Made by a program: the position numbers and the translations under genes. Positions 1 to 7,631 of a stretch of 64,000 nucleotides of DNA are shown piece after piece. The stretch is taken from contig NZ_PUEJ01000007.1 of the NCBI RefSeq assembly GCF_002982075.1, positions 248,001 to 312,000 on the forward strand, read 5' to 3'. The notes under the pieces were generated by a model that saw only the letters and a program-made list of their open reading frames with translations, did no database searches and was not told where the DNA came from. Position 1 is the stretch's first letter, and the number at the start of each line of letters is the position of its first letter. Source of the DNA: Labrys okinawensis. GTDB taxonomy: Bacteria; Pseudomonadota; Alphaproteobacteria; Rhizobiales; Labraceae.

Positions 1-501
1 GACGACCTGTTCGCTTTCTTCGCCAAGCTCGGCATCACCGTGACGACCGTCGAACATCCGCCCCTGTTCACGGTGGAGGATTCGAAGGCGCTGCGCGGGC
101 AGATCGCGGGCGGCCACACCAAGAATCTCTTCCTGAAGGACCGGAAGGGCAGGTTGTTCCTGGTGGTGCTGGAAGAGGATGCCAGCGTCGATCTCAAGCG
201 CATCCACGAGATCATCGGCGCCCAGGGCAAGGTATCCTTCGGCTCGGCCGAGCTGCTGACGCAGGTCTGGGGCGTGTTGCCCGGTGCCGTCACGCCCTTC
301 GGCGCCATCAACGACACCGAGGCGCAGGTGACCGTGGTGCTCGACCAGGCGCTGCTCGAGAACGACAAGCTCAACCATCATCCGCTGGTGAATACGCAGA
401 CCACCACGATCGCCCGTGAAGACCTCATTGCCTTCCTGCGTGCCACCGGGCACGAGCCCAAGATCCTTGCCGTCTCGCAGCCGCAGCAGGCGGATGCCTG
501 A
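1..501 (+). CDS. Prolyl-tRNA deacylase, YbaK/ProX family (5' end outside window)
   Basis: The reading frame is open from the first base of the window, so the true start lies upstream; a GTG at 40 is probably internal. The 166 visible residues form a YbaK/aminoacyl-tRNA deacylase domain. They include the core stretch HTKNLFLKDRKG and a C-terminal part with the pattern FGAINDTE and NHHPL seen in the free-standing ProX-type editing proteins. This family hydrolyses misacylated tRNA-Pro (Ala- or Cys-tRNA-Pro) in the cytoplasm to protect translation fidelity. It is followed by a 12-bp perfect hairpin. Family assignment is by recognition of the fold signature; the exact substrate is inferred. Confidence 0.85.
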   Translation, partial: DDLFAFFAKLGITVTTVEHPPLFTVEDSKALRGQIAGGHTKNLFLKDRKGRLFLVVLEEDASVDLKRIHEIIGAQGKVSFGSAELLTQVWGVLPGAVTPFGAINDTEAQVTVVLDQALLENDKLNHHPLVNTQTTTIAREDLIAFLRATGHEPKILAVSQPQQADA

Positions 502-526
502 GGTTGGCACGGTTCCACCGCCTGGC

Positions 527-620
527 GCGTTTTCCAGAAAAGCCGTTCGCTTTTCCGATGAGGAAAACGCGTTAAAGGAGTTGAAGAGAAAGTGCGCTTC
601 AGGGAAATCGCACTTTCTCT
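527..620. repeat. Dispersed intergenic repeat with 12-bp hairpin, likely terminator between convergent genes
   Basis: The element begins with GCGTTTTCCAGAAAAG (527-542), a 16-mer found exactly in reverse complement at 40534-40549. It ends with a perfect 12-bp inverted repeat, arms 585-596 and 609-620, with a 12-nt loop. It sits between the convergent ProX gene and the first Gly-Asn gene, where a bidirectional terminator would be useful. The same architecture recurs at 40444-40556, 43981-44076 and 60824-60917. Confidence 0.6.
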
Positions 621-693
621 GACTCGAAATCCCGGCATCCCATGCCGGTATGTTCCCGAAAGCCCGTCGAGCCGCCGACGGGCATGATCCCGT

Positions 694-1287
694 TCAGTCG
701 AGGCAGCCGCGGAAAATATCGTATCTCATGCATTTGCGGCGAGGCGCATAGGCGGCGGGTGACGTCGTGGCCCCGCGGGCATAGCGCTGGGCCGGCTGCT
801 GCACGCCGGCTACGCCGGCCGATGGCACGGCTCTGGGACCGACCTGGCAACGAATGCCTTCTGTGGCCAGGGCGCCGGCAACATCGGCGTCATAGCACAG
901 CATCTGGGTGGCGGCCCTGCGATAGCCCATGGCCTGAAGAGTGCGGGCGAAGAGGCGGATGTTGCAGCCCTGGTCGAGTTTGGTGGTGCCGAAGCTGAAG
1001 CCGAAGCCGGCACCCGAGCCGCCGACGCTGACGCTGCCGAGACAGGCTTCGATGCCCGCGGCCGCAAGGCCGGGCGCAAACGCGGCAGGGGCCTGACGTC
1101 GATCGCGATGATTCAGAGTGGCACCGCCGACATTGCCGGTAATGTTGCCGTTGCCATTGCCGTTGCCCGATCCGTCGCCCGAATTATTGCCGTTGCCTGT
1201 CCCGTTCTGCGCCTGAGCCAGCGACGCAGCGGCAAGGAAAATGGCGACGGTGAAGAAATAGACAATACCCTTTGCAAGCGATTTCAT
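694..1287 (-). CDS. Secreted Gly-Asn-linker protein with conserved C-terminal Cys-containing domain
   Basis: This 197-residue protein starts with a classical signal peptide (MKSLAKG, hydrophobic core, cleavage after SLAQA about residue 26). The start at 1287 was chosen over an in-frame upstream one because the signal peptide begins there. Residues about 27-50 are a short Gly-Asn-Ser linker. The rest is a folded-looking domain with the signature GGSGAGFGFSFGTTK, DQGCNIRLFARTLQAMG and a later MLC. I recall similar stretches in hypothetical alphaproteobacterial proteins, function unknown. It is the last of five same-strand Gly-Asn-rich genes and differs from the other four in having this C-terminal domain. 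Confidence 0.75.
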   Translation of the reverse strand: MKSLAKGIVYFFTVAIFLAAASLAQAQNGTGNGNNSGDGSGNGNGNGNITGNVGGATLNHRDRRQAPAAFAPGLAAAGIEACLGSVSVGGSGAGFGFSFGTTKLDQGCNIRLFARTLQAMGYRRAATQMLCYDADVAGALATEGIRCQVGPRAVPSAGVAGVQQPAQRYARGATTSPAAYAPRRKCMRYDIFRGCLD

Positions 1288-1396
1288 ATGCGTTCCCCCA
1301 AACACAAATACGCTCACAAACTTCTGGAAAGTCTATGAGGTGTACAGGAGGCTACGCTACAAATAGGATTTTCGCAATGAATACAATATTTTATCG

Positions 1397-1768
1397 CTAA
1401 GGAACCTGACGGCGAGTAATGCCGCAGCGCTGAAGTTCTTTCATTAGGCGCTCGTAGTCCCAGCTATACGTCATCTCGTTATGGTTTCCATTGTTGTCAC
1501 TTGTGAAGCAGTTTCCGTTTCCGTTACCAGAATTGAAATTGCCGTTATTGTTTCCTTGATTGAAGTTTCCATTAAAGTTGCCGGTATTGCCGTTGCCGTT
1601 GTTGTTTCCTCGTCCAACGCTGTATTGAGCGAGGATAACATCATCTTTCCGCAGTATCTCGATTTGCGCCGCTCCGTGCTGCCGGCCTGGGACATGGCAA
1701 CGGAAAAGCGCCGGAATCTGCGGGCTGGGAAGGGGCTGCCGGCAACCGATATCGAGGTCTGCGATCAT
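1397..1768 (-). CDS. Small Gly-Asn-rich protein without recognisable signal peptide
   Basis: This 123-residue protein has an unremarkable N-terminal 50 residues, then about 40 residues of Asn-Gly-rich sequence with FNGNFN and FNSGNGN units. Its C-terminal tail is charged (YERLMKELQRCGITRR). The Gly-Asn part is irregular compared with the 13-residue repeats of its neighbours. The ATG at 1768 has an AGGA eight bases upstream. No signal peptide is visible, which is odd beside four secreted relatives. The N-terminus may be a replaced or frameshifted leader. It could be a degenerate copy. The composition matches its neighbours, so I keep it as a gene with moderate confidence. Confidence 0.55.
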   Translation of the reverse strand: MIADLDIGCRQPLPSPQIPALFRCHVPGRQHGAAQIEILRKDDVILAQYSVGRGNNNGNGNTGNFNGNFNQGNNNGNFNSGNGNGNCFTSDNNGNHNEMTYSWDYERLMKELQRCGITRRQVP

Positions 1769-1815
1769 GGTTGCATTCCTGTGATCAAGGACGGTGGATC
1801 GGTATAAACCATAAA

Positions 1816-1846
1816 GGCCGGACCGACCTCTCCGATCGATCCGGCC
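1816..1846 (-). terminator. Candidate terminator after the third Gly-Asn gene
   Basis: Seven-base complementary arms (1816-1822 and 1840-1846) flank a 17-nt loop. On the minus strand the stem is followed by TTTAT. It lies 21 bases past the stop codon of the gene at 1867-2403. The stem is short, so the call is tentative. Confidence 0.35.
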
Positions 1847-1866
1847 GAAGCTGCCTCGGCAGCCTC

Positions 1867-2403
<537 letters not shown>

Positions 2404-2630
2404 GGTTCTACCTTTCCTGGACTGGGTTCGGGAAAGGCATTGCCTTCCCATCGTGGTCGTCGGATCCCTCGAGAGGCCGGAAGGCACATGGGCACAGGGC
2501 AGGCCCTTGCTCCGTGATGTTTTGTTTCACGGAACCGAAGCCGGGGCGCGGCCGGGCAAAGCATGCACCTTGGGGGGATGTTCGGTGCGTCTTCGGCCGA
2601 GCGAAGGCGCGCCGCTTCTCGTCCGCCGGC

Positions 2631-3218
2631 TTACCGTGAGGTGCAGCCGTGGTTCAGGAGGTTGCAACTGGACGGTGTGTTCGCATTCCTGGCGGTCGCG
2701 CTGGTTACGGTGACGGTCACGCCACCCGGTGCCGGATCGTCCGGCCCGCCGATGCCGTAATTGCCGTTGCCGTTCATGTTGCCATTGTCGGTCCCGGTGT
2801 TGCCGTTGCCGTTGTAATTGCCGTTCAGCGTACCGGTGTTGAAATTGCCATTCATATTGCCGTTGCCGGTTCCGGTGTTGCCGTTGCCGTTCATGTTGCC
2901 ATTGTCGGTTCCGGTGTTGCCGTTGCCGTTCATGTTGCCATTGCCGGTTCCGGTATTGCCGTTGCCGTTCATGTTGCCGTTGCCGGTTCCGGTGTTGCCG
3001 TTGCCGTTCATGTTGCCGTTGCCGGTTCCGGTGTTGTTGTTGCCGTTGCCGTTGCCGTTGTTGGTGCCGGAATTGCCGTTGCCATTGCCGTTGCCATTGC
3101 CGGTTCCGGTGTTGCCATTCCCGTTGCCGTTGCCATTGCCGAATCCCGCATAGGCGCTGAGGACCGGGGTGCAGACCAGTGCCGCACTCAGCAGCAGCCG
3201 CGTGAGGAGGGTGCGCAT
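2631..3218 (-). CDS. Secreted protein with nine 13-residue Gly-Asn repeats
   Basis: This 195-residue protein has a 24-residue signal peptide (cleavage after SAYA), a short GNGNGN run, then nine uninterrupted 13-residue repeats at residues 37-153. The commonest unit is TGTGNGNMNGNGN. The repeat array ends with YGIGG. A 37-residue tail follows, containing VTVTVTSATAR and two Cys (SSCNLLNHGC) that could form a disulfide. The start at 3218 begins the signal peptide and is preceded by an AAAGGA ribosome site. Compared with its neighbours the repeats are nearly identical to each other, which suggests recent duplication of a 39-bp unit. Confidence 0.82.
   Translation of the reverse strand: MRTLLTRLLLSAALVCTPVLSAYAGFGNGNGNGNGNTGTGNGNGNGNGNSGTNNGNGNGNNNTGTGNGNMNGNGNTGTGNGNMNGNGNTGTGNGNMNGNGNTGTDNGNMNGNGNTGTGNGNMNGNFNTGTLNGNYNGNGNTGTDNGNMNGNGNYGIGGPDDPAPGGVTVTVTSATARNANTPSSCNLLNHGCTSR
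2760..3110. repeat. Nine tandem 39-bp repeats inside a coding region
   Basis: The DNA encoding residues 37-153 of the gene at 2631-3218 is nine tandem 39-bp units, several of which differ by only one or two bases. Within each unit are smaller TTGCCG hexamers encoding Gly-Asn. Such nested repeats could change copy number by slippage or recombination. The repeats stay in frame, so length changes would give proteins with more or fewer units. Confidence 0.85.
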
Positions 3219-3586
3219 GATACTGTCCTTTCTTGCGACTCGAAAAACAGCCTGGCCGAAGGCCTGGAGGCGTGTTCGATGATCGGGCGGTGCGGTCTGT
3301 CGCTGCCGCGGCCCGTCCATGATGCACTGTGACTGGACCTGCACGCTCGGAGCATTCGGGGCGGTTCGTCTGTCGGATCGAACGGCCGAGGCTCGGTCGG
3401 AAGGGCCTGGATGCGGGATCCTCTTCCGTCGGCCGTCCGCAGGACGCTACGCCGGAACAGGGAGAGAAGAGAAGCAGCGCATCCAGATTTCAGAGCTCGA
3501 GCGGCGAACGCTGAACGCCAGGGGAGGCGGGAGCTGACCGGCAGCCGGGAGGGAAGGCAGGCCAGCTCCCTGAGTGCGAGCAAGGC
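3219..3586. other. Spacer between Gly-Asn genes
   Basis: These 368 bases between the fifth and fourth Gly-Asn genes must hold the promoter of the gene at 2631-3218 unless it is co-transcribed. I see the ribosome site just upstream of 3218 but no convincing promoter boxes or strong hairpin. Open frames here on both strands lack coding character. Confidence 0.5.
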
Positions 3587-4042
3587 TTACTGGTTGCCGT
3601 TGCCGTTGCCATTGCCGCTGAAGGCGCCCCAGTTGTGGTTGCCGTTCAGGTTGCCGTTGCCGATGCCATAGTTGGCATTGCCGTTCAGGTTGCCGTTGCC
3701 GAAGCCGAAGTTGTGGTTGCCGTTGGCATTGCCGTTGCCGAGGCCGAGATTGCCGTTGCCGTTGGCATTGCCATTGCCGATGCCGGCATTGCCGTTGCCG
3801 TTGCCATTCCCGTTGACGGCGCCGGCATTGCCGTTGCCGTTGCCGTTGCCGTTGAGGGCGCCCCAGTTTCCGTTGCCGTTGCCGTTGCCGTTGAAGGCGC
3901 CGGTATTGGCGTTGCCGTTGCCGTTGCCGTTGCCGAAGCCGACATTGCCGTTGCCGTTGCCGTTGCCACTGCCAACGCTGAAGGCCATCGCGGCGCTGGA
4001 GACGCTCAGGATCAGGGCGGATGCGATGAGAAGCGATTTCAT
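3587..4042 (-). CDS. Secreted protein made almost entirely of 13-residue Gly-Asn repeats
   Basis: The 151-residue product starts with a signal peptide (MKSLLIAS, cleavage near AAMA at residue 20). It then consists of a short GN run and nine 13-residue units up to the last residue. Consensus is xGxxNGNxNGNxN. Position 1 takes V, T, W, A, A, L, F, Y, W and position 3 takes F, A, A, A, I, L, F, I, A, so each unit carries one short hydrophobic or aromatic segment followed by strictly alternating Asn. There is no other domain. It is the first gene of the cluster reading away from the LuxR gene. The regular period argues for a repetitive beta-fold such as a solenoid or amyloid-like fibre; no experimental function is known to me. 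Confidence 0.83.
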   Translation of the reverse strand: MKSLLIASALILSVSSAAMAFSVGSGNGNGNGNVGFGNGNGNGNANTGAFNGNGNGNGNWGALNGNGNGNGNAGAVNGNGNGNGNAGIGNGNANGNGNLGLGNGNANGNHNFGFGNGNLNGNANYGIGNGNLNGNHNWGAFSGNGNGNGNQ

Positions 4043-4383
4043 AATTGTCTCTCCACTCAGTCTGTCTTGTGAGGTGCTTAAGGCTGTAATCAGCAGAAGC
4101 TTTTTCTTTAAGATCGCGATGATTACAGTTTTAATCTTATTGGTTTTTGAGTGTAGAGAAACTTGTCTATTGGAATTAGTACAAAGGGGTATTAATTCAG
4201 GAGTGTTATACTAAAAATTCATTTGGGCATGTCAAATAGTGCCGCGTGACGACGCTGGCGCGTGCCATGCAGCTCAAAGGCCCCGGATCATTCGAGAGGG
4301 AGAATATTCGAGGTGTGGAACGGCTGGATCAGAGTTCCCCAACACATCCAGCCCGGTCCATCGGACGTCTTCTGTCGTGGTCG
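4043..4383. promoter_or_regulatory. AT-rich promoter region of the Gly-Asn cluster
   Basis: These 341 bases separate the first Gly-Asn gene from the LuxR gene. The part at 4080-4230 is markedly AT-rich for this genome. It contains an 8-bp inverted repeat, CTGTAATC at 4084-4091 and GATTACAG at 4121-4128, ending 42 bases upstream of the ATG at 4042, a plausible regulator site. Near the LuxR stop codon another 8-bp dyad (4322-4329 and 4346-4353) may end the LuxR transcript. No promoter boxes can be assigned with confidence. Confidence 0.4.
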
Positions 4384-5208
4384 TCAATAGGCGACGGCAG
4401 CAACGGCCATCTGGCTGTCTTCGCAATCGGGGCCGATCATCATGGTGGCGCCGGGCGAACGCATCTGACTGCCGCACATCAGGGCGACTTCGGTCCGATT
4501 GCGCAGGTGGAATTTGCGCATGATGTTGCGGATATGGACCTTTGCTGTGCTCTCGGAAATGTTGAGGGCATGCGCGATGATCTTGTTCTGCTTACCCTTC
4601 TGGAGCAGGCTCAGGACGTCCATCTCGCGGTCGGTGAGATTGAGATGGATATCGGAACGCAAGTGGCGCTCGGGCTGCGGCTTGGGCGCGCTCAAGGGCG
4701 GTTCTGTGAACAGGGCGGTGGCGCTCGCATAGGAGACGGGCTGAGTAGCCGTTTCCTCGCACACTGGAAGCGACAGGCTCCGCCGGATCGCACTCACCAT
4801 GGCATTGAAGCCCATCGAGGCCGTGATCCAGCTGTGGACGCCGGCTTCCTCCATCAATCGACCGATCGGAGGATCGCTGTTGTCGGTGACCACCAGCAAA
4901 GGCAGCTTACCGATACGGGCTTGTAATTGCTGAATGACGAAGGCGACGAAGAGCGGATCGGTGCTGCGCTGCACCAGGCTGAGTATGGCGAGGGAGGCTT
5001 GAGCGCCGCCTTCTCCGGGAGCGCCCATAATGCGCACGTCGATATCGTCCGCGGCTTCCTTGAGAGCATGCGAAAAGATTTCGCCCAGCAGGGGGCGGCT
5101 CTCGATCAGCAGGACCACTTTACGATCTGTAGTAGCTAGGGCGCTCGGTTCTGTTTGTCTGTTATCATGACAATCCAGCATGTCATTGCAGGTGACGTGG
5201 TGACTCAT
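4384..5208 (-). CDS. LuxR-family DNA-binding regulator with degenerate receiver-like domain
   Basis: This 274-residue protein has a response-regulator-like N-terminal half (KVVLLIESRPLLGEIF at about 30-45, LLVVTD near 130) that lacks an obvious phosphoacceptor Asp and acidic pocket. Its C-terminal half is a classic LuxR/FixJ helix-turn-helix (LTDREMDVLSLLQKGKQNK, then SESTAKVHIRNI). The start at 5208 has AGAGG seven bases upstream and is preferred over a longer frame from 5274. The degenerate receiver plus LuxR helix-turn-helix is the layout of CsgD/VpsT-type biofilm regulators. It lies on the same strand immediately upstream of the Gly-Asn cluster, so it is a natural candidate to control it. 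That link is inferred from position. Confidence 0.8.
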   Translation of the reverse strand: MSHHVTCNDMLDCHDNRQTEPSALATTDRKVVLLIESRPLLGEIFSHALKEAADDIDVRIMGAPGEGGAQASLAILSLVQRSTDPLFVAFVIQQLQARIGKLPLLVVTDNSDPPIGRLMEEAGVHSWITASMGFNAMVSAIRRSLSLPVCEETATQPVSYASATALFTEPPLSAPKPQPERHLRSDIHLNLTDREMDVLSLLQKGKQNKIIAHALNISESTAKVHIRNIMRKFHLRNRTEVALMCGSQMRSPGATMMIGPDCEDSQMAVAAVAY

Positions 5209-5956
5209 GATTGGCCTCTTTGAAAGTTCTGGCGTTACTTCCTCTATAAGTCTTCTTGTCGGTTGGGCTTCCACCCCAATACGTCATTAGGGTGTGGGCC
5301 GTTACACTTGCGTGACAGTTCCGCGCTGCCGACCTGAACGGCCTGTTGTCGAGCGCAACCACTTTCACCGGGCACCACGAATTTCTTCAGGGCGGCGGCC
5401 GAAAAGTAAAACGATTCACGAATAATAGGACGCCTGAATATTGATTATCGCGATGTGGCTTTTATCTCACAGAAACGACTATTCGCGAAAGTCTTTTGGG
5501 ATTAATCCGAAAGGAACCTTCCCTAGCGGCAGCCCAAAAAGGTATCATATTGAGGTGTAAGGCGATTTTCAGCCTTCCCGGTTCGTGCATGCCAGTTATA
5601 TTGAGGAAGGCGTGAATTCGCCGTGATTTGAGTGAAGTTCCGGAATACGATGAATAAACTTCAATCTTTAGAAAGATGGCACTGATCGCTGGTGTATAGG
5701 CAAGTGATTTTCTTTCTGTACAAGGCGGACTTCGATGCTCTTCATCACGGCGGACGGCGATTCTGCTGTTGGTCGACTACCACTGTTACCTCTTTTGAGG
5801 CTCATCGGCGAAAAATAGGTATGGAGTTCCATTCGTTCCATTCCTGTAACAAGCAAGACGAAATCTATTGTTTCGTACAGCGCCGCATGCGTGGCAGTTG
5901 CCTTCGTGGCAATTTACCCCCATCTAACCGCGGACGGAGTTTTCTAGCGGGTAGGA
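5209..5956. other. Long AT-rich intergenic region
   Basis: These 748 bases separate the divergent LuxR and thioredoxin genes. Base composition is clearly more AT-rich than in the genes, especially 5400-5720. The ribosome site of the LuxR gene (around 5215-5220) and AGGA before 5957 are visible. Short frames such as 5668-5856 minus and 5692-6117 plus have no recognisable product or coding bias. I see no RNA gene or mobile element. The length suggests a complex upstream regulatory region for the LuxR gene. Confidence 0.45.
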
Positions 5957-6853
5957 ATGATGAGCAACGACGCTGCCGGAGCCAACGGTCTAATCAAGGA
6001 TACCACTACGCAGACCTTCATGGCCGACGTGATTCAGGAATCGATGAAGCAGCCGGTGCTGGTCGACTTCTGGGCCGAGTGGTGCGGCCCCTGCAAGCAA
6101 TTGGGGCCGATGCTTGAAAAGGCGGTGCTGGCGGCCAAGGGCAAGGTCAAGCTGGTGAAGATGGATATCGACAAGCACCCGCAGATTGCCGGGCAATTGG
6201 GGGTGCAGTCGATTCCCGCCGTCTTCGCCTTCTCCAAGGGCCAGCCTGTCGACGGTTTCATGGGGGCCATTCCCGAAAGCCAGATCAAGGAATTCATCAG
6301 CAGAATCGCCGGCCCCGGCGGCGACCCGGACACCGAGGCCTTGCTGGCCGAGGCCGAAGCCTTGCTGAATGAGGGCGACGGCGCGGCGGCGGCTCAACTC
6401 TTCGCGCAGATATTCGAGCAGGACGCCGAAAACCTGAAGGCGATCGCCGGCCTGGCGCGCTGTGCACTCGCCGCCGGGGAACTGGAACAGGCCAAGGCCA
6501 CGCTCTCGCTCACGCCAAAGGGCAAGGAGAACGATCCCGTCATCGCCAGCGCCCGTGCTGCACTTGAATTGGCCGAACAGGCCAATGACGTCGGTGACCT
6601 GCAGGCGCTGGCGCGCCAGGTGGAGGCCGAGCCGAAGAACTTTCAGGCCAAGTTCGACTACGCTCTCGCTTTGGCGGCCGCCAATCGGCGCGAGGAAGCG
6701 GTCGACCAACTCCTCGACATCGCCCGGCGCGACCGCAAATGGAACGACGACGGTGCACGCAAACAGCTCGTGCAGTTCTTCGAGGCCTGGGGCCCGATGG
6801 ATGAGAACACCATCTATGGCCGCCGCAGGTTGTCGTCGATCCTGTTCTCATAA
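5957..6853 (+). CDS. Thioredoxin-TPR protein, CnoX/YbbN family
   Basis: The 298-residue protein has an N-terminal thioredoxin domain with the active-site motif WCGPCK at residues 42-47 and the cis-Pro in SIPAVFAF. The C-terminal 160 residues are tetratricopeptide-like helices (ALLNEGDGAAAAQLFAQIF, FDYALALAAANRREEAVDQLL). This architecture matches CnoX/YbbN, a cytoplasmic chaperedoxin that cooperates with GroEL and DnaK. Both thioredoxin cysteines are present, as in the redox-active alphaproteobacterial members. Two consecutive ATG codons open the gene; GTAGGA is better spaced for the second, at 5960. It heads a run of same-strand genes continuing with the LON-domain and Trm112-like genes. Confidence 0.88.
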   Translation: MMSNDAAGANGLIKDTTTQTFMADVIQESMKQPVLVDFWAEWCGPCKQLGPMLEKAVLAAKGKVKLVKMDIDKHPQIAGQLGVQSIPAVFAFSKGQPVDGFMGAIPESQIKEFISRIAGPGGDPDTEALLAEAEALLNEGDGAAAAQLFAQIFEQDAENLKAIAGLARCALAAGELEQAKATLSLTPKGKENDPVIASARAALELAEQANDVGDLQALARQVEAEPKNFQAKFDYALALAAANRREEAVDQLLDIARRDRKWNDDGARKQLVQFFEAWGPMDENTIYGRRRLSSILFS

Positions 6854-6971
6854 ATAGTGACGCGGCCCGCCAGCAGGCCGTAAGATATCGCCTGAAGGTC
6901 GCGGTCTCGATCTGTCATGCCCCGTCCTTGGGCCATGACAGTCTCCAGGCCCGTTTGAGGAATGGCAGCCG

Positions 6972-7631
6972 ATGCATCCCTTGTTCAAGACGGAGGCCGA
7001 TCTGCCTCCTGTCATTCCGGTATTCCCTCTGGCCGGCGCCCTGCTGCTGCCGCGGGGCCAGCTGCCGCTGAACATCTTCGAACCGCGTTATCTGGCCATG
7101 ATCGACGACGTGCTGAAGGGGCCGCGCCTGATCGGTATGATTCAGCCCGAAGACGAAGAAAACGAGACGATGCCGCGCCTGTTCCAGGTCGGCTGCGTCG
7201 GGCGTCTCACTCAATTCGCCGAAACGAATGACGGGCGCTACCTCATCCAGCTCACGGGAATTTCGCGTTTCAAGGTGCTGGCGGAAGAAACCGTTACCAC
7301 GGCCTACCGCCAGTGCCGTATCACGGCCGAGCCCTTCGCCATCGACTTCACCCCGCGTGCGGGGGAGGAGGAGGTCGACCGCAAGAGCCTGATCGATACG
7401 TTGCGCGCCTATCTTGCCGTCAATCGCTTCCAGGTCGACTGGAACGATATCCACGAGGCATCGAACGAGGCGCTGGTCAACGCGCTGTCGATGATGAGCC
7501 CGTTCGGGCGGCGCGAGAAACAGGCGCTGCTCGAGGCCTCGTGCCTGCGCGAGCGCGCAGAGATCCTGGTCGCCATCACGCAGATCGAATTGGCCAAGAG
7601 CGGCGACGGCTCCGATACGCCGCTGCAGTGA
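6972..7631 (+). CDS. LON N-terminal (substrate-binding) domain protein
   Basis: The 219-residue protein is a stand-alone LON-SB domain. It has VIPVFPLAGALLLPRGQLPLNIFEPRY near the N-terminus, the family hallmark where Lon begins, then a beta-rich body and a C-terminal helical bundle. The ATPase and protease parts of Lon are absent, which is normal for this family of about 220 residues. Its biochemical role is not established. It is commonly found beside the thioredoxin-TPR and Trm112-like genes in alphaproteobacteria, as here, with only 6 bases to the next gene. Confidence 0.88.
   Translation: MHPLFKTEADLPPVIPVFPLAGALLLPRGQLPLNIFEPRYLAMIDDVLKGPRLIGMIQPEDEENETMPRLFQVGCVGRLTQFAETNDGRYLIQLTGISRFKVLAEETVTTAYRQCRITAEPFAIDFTPRAGEEEVDRKSLIDTLRAYLAVNRFQVDWNDIHEASNEALVNALSMMSPFGRREKQALLEASCLRERAEILVAITQIELAKSGDGSDTPLQ

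What the first reader, a model, noticed from the sequence alone, without database searches (positions are those of the whole stretch)
694..4042. Five-gene cluster of secreted Gly-Asn proteins with a 13-residue repeat
Three adjacent genes encode signal peptides followed by tandem 13-residue units of pattern xGxxNGNxNGNxN (six, nine and nine regular units). Two further neighbours carry irregular Gly-Asn segments. The strict alternation of Asn and a single hydrophobic or aromatic segment per unit suggests a stacked beta-structure. The sequence does not fit curlin repeats (no conserved Gln/Ser spacing) or the five-residue period of mycobacterial MPTR repeats. It may be a new secreted fibre, adhesin or matrix protein family working as a set of paralogues.
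Basis: partly seen in the sequence, partly recalled or inferred. Interest (0 to 1): 0.85.

Follow-up and report, generated by a model that had tools for sequence, protein, structure and literature searches.

The report
Secreted glycine-asparagine repeat protein gene set
A small gene island in some Labrys bacteria encodes secreted proteins built almost entirely of glycine and asparagine in a strict 13-residue repeat; the same ordered gene set recurs, next to LuxR-type regulators and in one branch next to a MacAB export pump, across many soil and plant-associated alphaproteobacteria, and is a plausible, unrecognised extracellular fibre or matrix system.

Summary
P0001, P0007 and P0003 have AxA-type signal peptides followed by 13-residue units NGNxNGNxNxGxx; lag-13 identity of P0001 is 0.72 against 0.27 +/- 0.04 in shuffles, and all genes are under purifying selection (dN/dS 0.05-0.26). 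One correction: gene 4 has no signal peptide and its first 40 codons look non-coding. The cluster is not a Labrys oddity. A DNA pattern scan of named genomes found the family in Mesorhizobium, Methylobacterium, Aureimonas, Roseiarcus, Bradyrhizobium, Amaricoccus, Geminicoccus and others, usually as an ordered set: A (all 13-mers), B (13-mers, 5-mers and 9/18-mers), C (9-mers). LuxR/NarL-type regulators lie in 25 of 46 such loci, about 17 times the density in the Labrys genome. In Methylobacterium, Roseiarcus and Xanthobacteraceae, MacA-MacB genes lie beside the set. In Labrys the whole 5.4 kb sits between ybaK and ybbN; G004 has a clean empty site. No Pfam, NCBIfam or PDB family matches. Labrys has no detectable curlin or CsgG. 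A low-confidence model of P0001 is a 13-residue-coil beta-solenoid; B gave no fold. Best reading: regulated, Sec-exported, surface-assembling solenoid proteins, curli-like in logic but not curli. Assembly and function are inferred.

The parts
3587..4042 (-). Type A protein P0001, 151 aa: signal peptide (1-20) plus about nine 13-residue NGNxNGNxNxGxx units
   Evidence: aligned with 20 homologues; dN/dS 0.10-0.15
2631..3218 (-). Second type A protein P0007, 195 aa: signal peptide (1-24), about ten 13-residue units rich in TGTGNGNMNGNGN, C-terminal non-repeat tail with two Cys
   Evidence: (dN/dS 0.15-0.23)
1867..2403 (-). Type B protein P0003, 178 aa: signal peptide (1-24), 13-residue units, then a conserved region NGNIGYGNGGTGNIGAFNGRGNSSSTSGNNN and 9/18-residue units
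   Evidence: aligned with 17 homologues; dN/dS 0.05-0.13
1397..1768 (-). Type C homologue P0004: 9-residue Gly-Asn units and a Cys-containing tail; no signal peptide; coding signature only from about position 1648 downwards
694..1287 (-). P0005, 197 aa: signal peptide, short Gly-Asn segment, C-terminal Cys-containing domain resembling phrog_20531 (unknown function); among 40 relatives found only in the three Labrys genomes with the island
   Evidence: (dN/dS 0.05-0.08)
4384..5208 (-). LuxR-type regulator P0006: C-terminal GerE helix-turn-helix, N-terminal region without a recognisable receiver domain
1816..1846 (-). Terminator-like stem (13 pairs, 9 GC) after the type B gene, before the type C gene
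   Evidence: 14 terminator-like sites found against 7.9 expected in the region, so only suggestive
4208..4235 (-). Promoter-like site TTGACA-16-TAGTAT upstream of P0001
   Evidence: number of such sites is at chance level; weak
502..5956 (.). Whole island between the ybaK-like gene (40-501) and the ybbN-like thioredoxin gene (5957-6853), present in 3 of 5 Labrys genomes

Best explanation
The island is a Labrys copy of a widespread alphaproteobacterial gene set for small, nearly uncharged, Gly-Asn repeat proteins that are made under control of a LuxR-type regulator (with a histidine kinase in other genera), carried by Sec to the periplasm, moved across the outer membrane (by a MacAB-TolC-type pump in the Methylobacterium/Roseiarcus/Xanthobacteraceae branch; route unknown in Labrys), and assembled at the cell surface. 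Each 13-residue unit is proposed to be one coil of a thin beta-solenoid, with Asn ladders and a stack of hydrophobic or aromatic side chains at x10, x12 and x13, so that copies stack end to end into fibres or a matrix. A would be the main building block, B a related starter, capping or anchoring subunit, C a third accessory protein. Shown: the gene set, its order, signal peptides by eye, purifying selection, regulator linkage, MacAB linkage in one branch. Inferred: export across the outer membrane, solenoid fold, fibre assembly, division of labour, adhesive or matrix role.
For: Ordered A-B-C set recurs in many genera. Purifying selection. LuxR/NarL-type HTH genes: 26 genes in 25 of 46 loci (the gene caller missed the GN genes of L092, L118 and L140, seen), against 28 in the 6.5 Mb Labrys genome, a density that would give about 1.5. 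MacA (HlyD_D23) beside the set in 10 loci, most with a MacB-type ATPase and a MacB_PCD/FtsX permease where the contig allows; in L112 B overlaps C and C is 61 bp from macA, in L114 the gap is 57 bp. MacAB-TolC exports a Sec-delivered small protein from the periplasm in E. coli (PMC5985334). In 353 type A units charged residues make up at most 10% at any position. AlphaFold P0001 model with two beta bridges per 13 residues; VIA Z 9.3 to TibA and 9.1 to antigen 43b, autotransporter beta-solenoids.
Against: The P0001 model is of low confidence and Foldseek matches are not significant; VIA Z values of this size can mean only a common arrangement. Type B gave no fold. MacAB linkage is absent from the Mesorhizobium and Labrys loci; Labrys has only distant MacA homologues at about 30% identity. 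No outer-membrane channel is encoded in the island. The type C gene in Labrys lacks a signal peptide. No expression or localisation data.
Confidence: 0.42

Rival explanations
1. The proteins are secreted but stay disordered, forming a hydrated Gly-Asn-rich coat or gel on the cell (protection against drying, spacing, or water or ice interaction) rather than an ordered fibre.
For: Gly plus Asn make up about 72% of mature P0001; type B model pLDDT 35; most positions of the P0001 model are below pLDDT 70.
Against: The strict 13-residue register with fixed N and G positions and recurring hydrophobic positions is more than a gel needs; the first units are conserved position by position across families.
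Confidence: 0.27
2. A periplasmic or outer-membrane-associated structural repeat protein that never leaves the cell.
For: The Labrys island encodes no dedicated exporter and Labrys has no detectable CsgG.
Against: MacAB genes are tightly linked to the set in another branch.
Confidence: 0.15
3. A surface-displayed two-component bacteriocin, working like Caulobacter Cdz: two small Gly-rich proteins secreted, aggregating on the producer's surface and killing by contact.
For: Alphaproteobacterial pair of small Gly-rich secreted proteins next to an ABC-type exporter in one branch; Cdz precedent (PMC5380434).
Against: Cdz proteins have hydrophobic glycine-zipper regions, a type I exporter and an immunity gene; these are polar Asn-rich repeats with Sec-type signal peptides, and no candidate small membrane immunity gene recurs next to them in these loci.
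Confidence: 0.1
4. A hexanucleotide microsatellite (GGCAAC) expansion with no protein function.
For: The DNA is a strong tandem repeat with 39 bp and 6 bp periods.
Against: Third-position bias and dN/dS 0.05-0.23 in the A, A' and B genes; conserved order with regulators across genera; the reversed pattern gives no matches in 397 genomes.
Confidence: 0.02

Closest known systems
Curli (CsgA/CsgB, PF07012) with CsgD and CsgG
   Same: Small secreted Gly/Asn-rich repeat subunits, paired related subunits, LuxR-type regulator next door
   Different: Unit is 13 residues NGNxNGNxNxGxx without the curlin Gln/Ser pattern; PF07012 finds nothing in the Labrys genome and CsgG nothing in five Labrys genomes
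Mycobacterial MPTR / Pentapeptide_2 repeats (PF01469)
   Same: Type B proteins contain NxGxx pentapeptides such as NSGTGNVGAF
   Different: Only 1 of 18 type B proteins reaches PF01469, at E 0.62; no PPE domain; main unit 13 residues
Self-associating autotransporter adhesins TibA and antigen 43 (beta-solenoid passengers)
   Same: Best structural matches of the low-confidence P0001 model (Z 9.3 and 9.1)
   Different: No autotransporter barrel; sequence identity 4-7%; far smaller proteins
Caulobacter Cdz contact-dependent bacteriocin
   Same: Pair of small Gly-rich secreted proteins in an alphaproteobacterium, ABC-type exporter in the locus, surface aggregates (PMC5380434)
   Different: Sec-type signal peptides, polar Asn repeats, MacAB and not a type I exporter, no immunity gene seen
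MacAB-TolC export of enterotoxin STII
   Same: Sec first, then periplasm-to-outside export by MacA-MacB (PMC5985334)
   Different: Substrate here unproven; linkage only in one branch of the family, not in Labrys

Membership tests
Curli system | Curlin repeats (PF07012) in the subunits | tested here: not met
   Pfam scan of the five proteins found none; PF07012 search of the own genome found none at E 10, while the control rang in E. coli
Curli system | CsgG outer-membrane channel | tested here: not met
   PF03783 absent from five Labrys genomes at E 0.001; controls rang
Curli system | Amyloid fibre formation | not testable with these tools
   needs purified protein
Pentapeptide_2 / MPTR (PF01469) | Match over the Pfam cut-off | tested here: not met
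   P0001, P0007, P0003: no family at E 10; type B set: 1 of 18, E 0.62
Beta-solenoid adhesins (TibA/Ag43 type) | Beta-solenoid fold | tested here: inconclusive
   pLDDT 62.5, pTM 0.47; Foldseek E 1 or worse; VIA Z up to 9.3
Beta-solenoid adhesins (TibA/Ag43 type) | Autotransporter beta-barrel domain | tested here: not met
   proteins are 151-195 aa and repeat to near the C-terminus; no Pfam match
Cdz-type bacteriocin | Conserved small membrane immunity gene beside the pair | tested here: inconclusive
   no such gene cluster among the neighbours in 46 loci by BLAST clustering, but small genes may be missed by the simple gene caller
Cdz-type bacteriocin | Contact-dependent killing | not testable with these tools
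   needs co-culture
MacAB-TolC export substrates | Genetic linkage to macA-macB | tested here: inconclusive
   met in 10 loci of one branch, not met in the Labrys or Mesorhizobium loci
LuxR-type regulator family (GerE, PF00196) | GerE domain over cut-off in P0006 | tested here: met
   68.7 bits, cut-off 23.5

The most novel reading that the evidence does not exclude
An unrecognised extracellular polymer pathway of alphaproteobacteria: three classes of Asn-ladder solenoid subunits (A, B, C) built by one rule, [NGNx]n-NxGxx, secreted by Sec plus a MacAB-type pump or an unknown route, assembled on the surface under LuxR/two-component control, distinct from curli, Fap, pili and autotransporters.
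Probability: 0.33. Interest if true: 0.85.

Novelty: new variant of a known kind. Interest (0 to 1): 0.62.

Why it matters
If right, a group of soil and plant-associated bacteria (Mesorhizobium, Methylobacterium, Aureimonas and others) has a protein surface polymer that no family library searched here names. The unit is extremely simple, so it would be a natural model for minimal beta-solenoid or amyloid design. The MacAB linkage gives a testable physiological protein substrate for a pump known mainly for drugs. The A-B-C order gives a direct genetic route to test the role of each subunit.

Tried and rejected
Pfam, NCBIfam and PHROGs for the repeat proteins: nothing. PDB sequence profile searches: nothing real; type A matched pheasant lysozyme at E 0.1, taken as chance. 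tblastn of P0003 against plasmids and P0005 against phages: no match, though the low-complexity filter limits the first. Protein alignment of mature type A sequences failed repeatedly, perhaps because so Gly/Asn/Ala-rich a set is taken for DNA; precursors worked. In alignment A1 one row was read on the wrong strand and it was not used. AlphaFold of type B: no usable model. A class-wide sample of 385 genomes found only the own genome, so the family is rare and patchy; in the order about 6 of 397 sampled genomes carry the repeat, three of them Labrys. Literature searches for Gly-Asn repeats found no bacterial description. Rfam found nothing in 1-7000. Many pattern hits outside alphaproteobacteria (Paenibacillus, actinobacteria, archaea) are plain NG-rich linkers and were set aside. 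The neighbour cluster c0 mixes LuxR and OmpR regulators; it was replaced by the HTH profile count. The P0001 value was computed on a gapped copy and is replaced.

Full report
Observation. The minus strand of 694-4042 carries five open frames. P0001 (3587-4042), P0007 (2631-3218) and P0003 (1867-2403) start with typical signal peptides, judged by eye, and continue as 13-residue units with the pattern NGNxNGNxNxGxx. The DNA pattern for one unit plus the next start occurs 20 times in the window and never in shuffles. Lag-13 identity is far above residue and dipeptide shuffles. Comparison with two other Labrys genomes gives dN/dS of 0.05-0.26 with most changes in third positions, so these are real genes and not only a microsatellite.

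Corrections. Gene 4 has no signal peptide; its first 40 codons show no codon bias while codons 61-123 do, and a terminator-like stem lies upstream of it. It is a homologue of the C proteins found elsewhere that may have lost its leader in Labrys. Gene 5 is mainly an unrelated domain with a match to phrog_20531 of unknown function; among 40 relatives only the three Labrys genomes with the island have it.

Where it lies. The window is in a Labrys genome: L139, from the named record Labrys sp. KNU-23 chromosome 2, matches genome G001 of the same genus. The island (502-5956) lies between a ybaK-like and a ybbN-like gene. It is present in G000, G001 and G002 and gives no match in G003 and G004. In G004 the two flanking genes are directly adjacent, an empty site; in G003 the ybaK-like gene was found but the other flank was not located, so that site is unresolved. 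Insertion in one lineage or loss in another cannot be told apart. GC of parts of the island is 0.48-0.53 against about 0.65 around it.

The family. After removing NG-rich linkers, 46 stretches carry the family; four are Labrys (three fetched by place, two of the four being the same genome), and several are close Mesorhizobium relatives, so they are not independent. Three classes appear. A is all 13-mers (alignment; spacing 13 in 279 cases). B begins with 13-mers and ends with NxGxx pentapeptides, a TSGNNN-type motif and 9/18-residue units. C has 9-residue units and often a Cys-containing tail. A then B on one strand is the rule, usually with C behind (the third gene is printed as A by the crude classifier and was assigned to C by reading the sequences). 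A set of paralogues without a B partner, mainly in Mesorhizobium soli, also exists (L064, L066, L107). The units can be written as [NGNx]n-NxGxx with n of 0, 1 or 2. In 353 A units no position has more than 10% charged residues; several positions of this count are fixed by the search pattern itself.

Regulators and export. LuxR/NarL-type HTH genes occur in 25 of 46 loci (26 genes; one search counted 22 of 43, and three further loci have GN genes seen only), while the Labrys genome has 28 in 6.5 Mb, a density that would give about 1.5 in the roughly 350 kb examined. The linkage is seen in Labrys, Mesorhizobium, Methylobacterium, Aureimonas, Roseiarcus and Aestuariivirga. In Mesorhizobium and Aureimonas a PAS/HisKA_3 histidine kinase accompanies the regulator; in Methylobacterium a HisKA kinase does. 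Ten loci from Methylobacterium, Roseiarcus, a Beijerinckiaceae MAG, a Xanthobacteraceae MAG and a proteobacterial MAG have a MacA gene, most with MacB genes; the order A-B-C-macA with short gaps in L112 and L114 suggests one operon there. E. coli MacAB-TolC exports a Sec-delivered protein from the periplasm (PMC5985334). Labrys has no such close MacA, so its export route is open.

Structure. AlphaFold gave P0001 pLDDT 62.5 and pTM 0.47, with short beta bridges at x10-G11 and G2-N3 of successive units. Foldseek matches are not significant but are mostly solenoids, among them MfpA, pectin lyases, tailspikes and synthetic beta1. VIA gave Z 9.3 to TibA and 9.1 to antigen 43b, in a range where common arrangements also score. 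Type B gave no model. The solenoid is a hypothesis.

Comparison with known systems. It works, if the reading is right, like curli: small repeat subunits, a related partner, a LuxR-type regulator. It is not curli: no curlin repeat and no detectable CsgG. It shares pentapeptides with MPTR in class B but does not meet the Pfam model. Cdz of Caulobacter is a functional rival.

Verdict. A real, conserved secreted protein set without a name in the libraries searched. Secretion to the periplasm is likely; surface assembly and the solenoid are moderate inferences; the biological role is open.

Noticed in passing
694-1287: P0005 combines a signal peptide, a short Gly-Asn stretch and a Cys-containing domain resembling phrog_20531 (unknown function, E 5e-14); among 40 relatives only the three Labrys genomes with the island have it.
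   Followed up: partly
4384-5208: The LuxR-type regulator has no recognisable receiver domain; HTH relatives beside Gly-Asn genes in Roseiarcus (L027), a proteobacterial MAG (L132), a Rhizobiales MAG (L037) and Aestuariivirga (L080) share a very similar NKxIA...TVKVHxxNIMxK helix region.
   Followed up: partly
L112:6253-6507, L132 near 4557-4827: Type C proteins here begin with SRRAFGAS and DRRAFGAT, which look like twin-arginine motifs, so C may use Tat rather than Sec.
   Followed up: no
L031:5396-6133, L064, L066, L107: Some Mesorhizobium soli and Pseudaminobacter repeat proteins have a His-rich stretch near the C-terminus (HHHHHH), possibly metal binding.
   Followed up: no
L037:3543-4991: A protein with a PEP-CTERM motif lies near Gly-Asn genes in a Rhizobiales MAG (Pfam E 5.5e-05).
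   Followed up: no
L128, L039 (Methanosarcina MAGs): Archaeal proteins with NGNCNGNxNxGSxNGN-like stretches resemble the repeat over short lengths.
   Followed up: no
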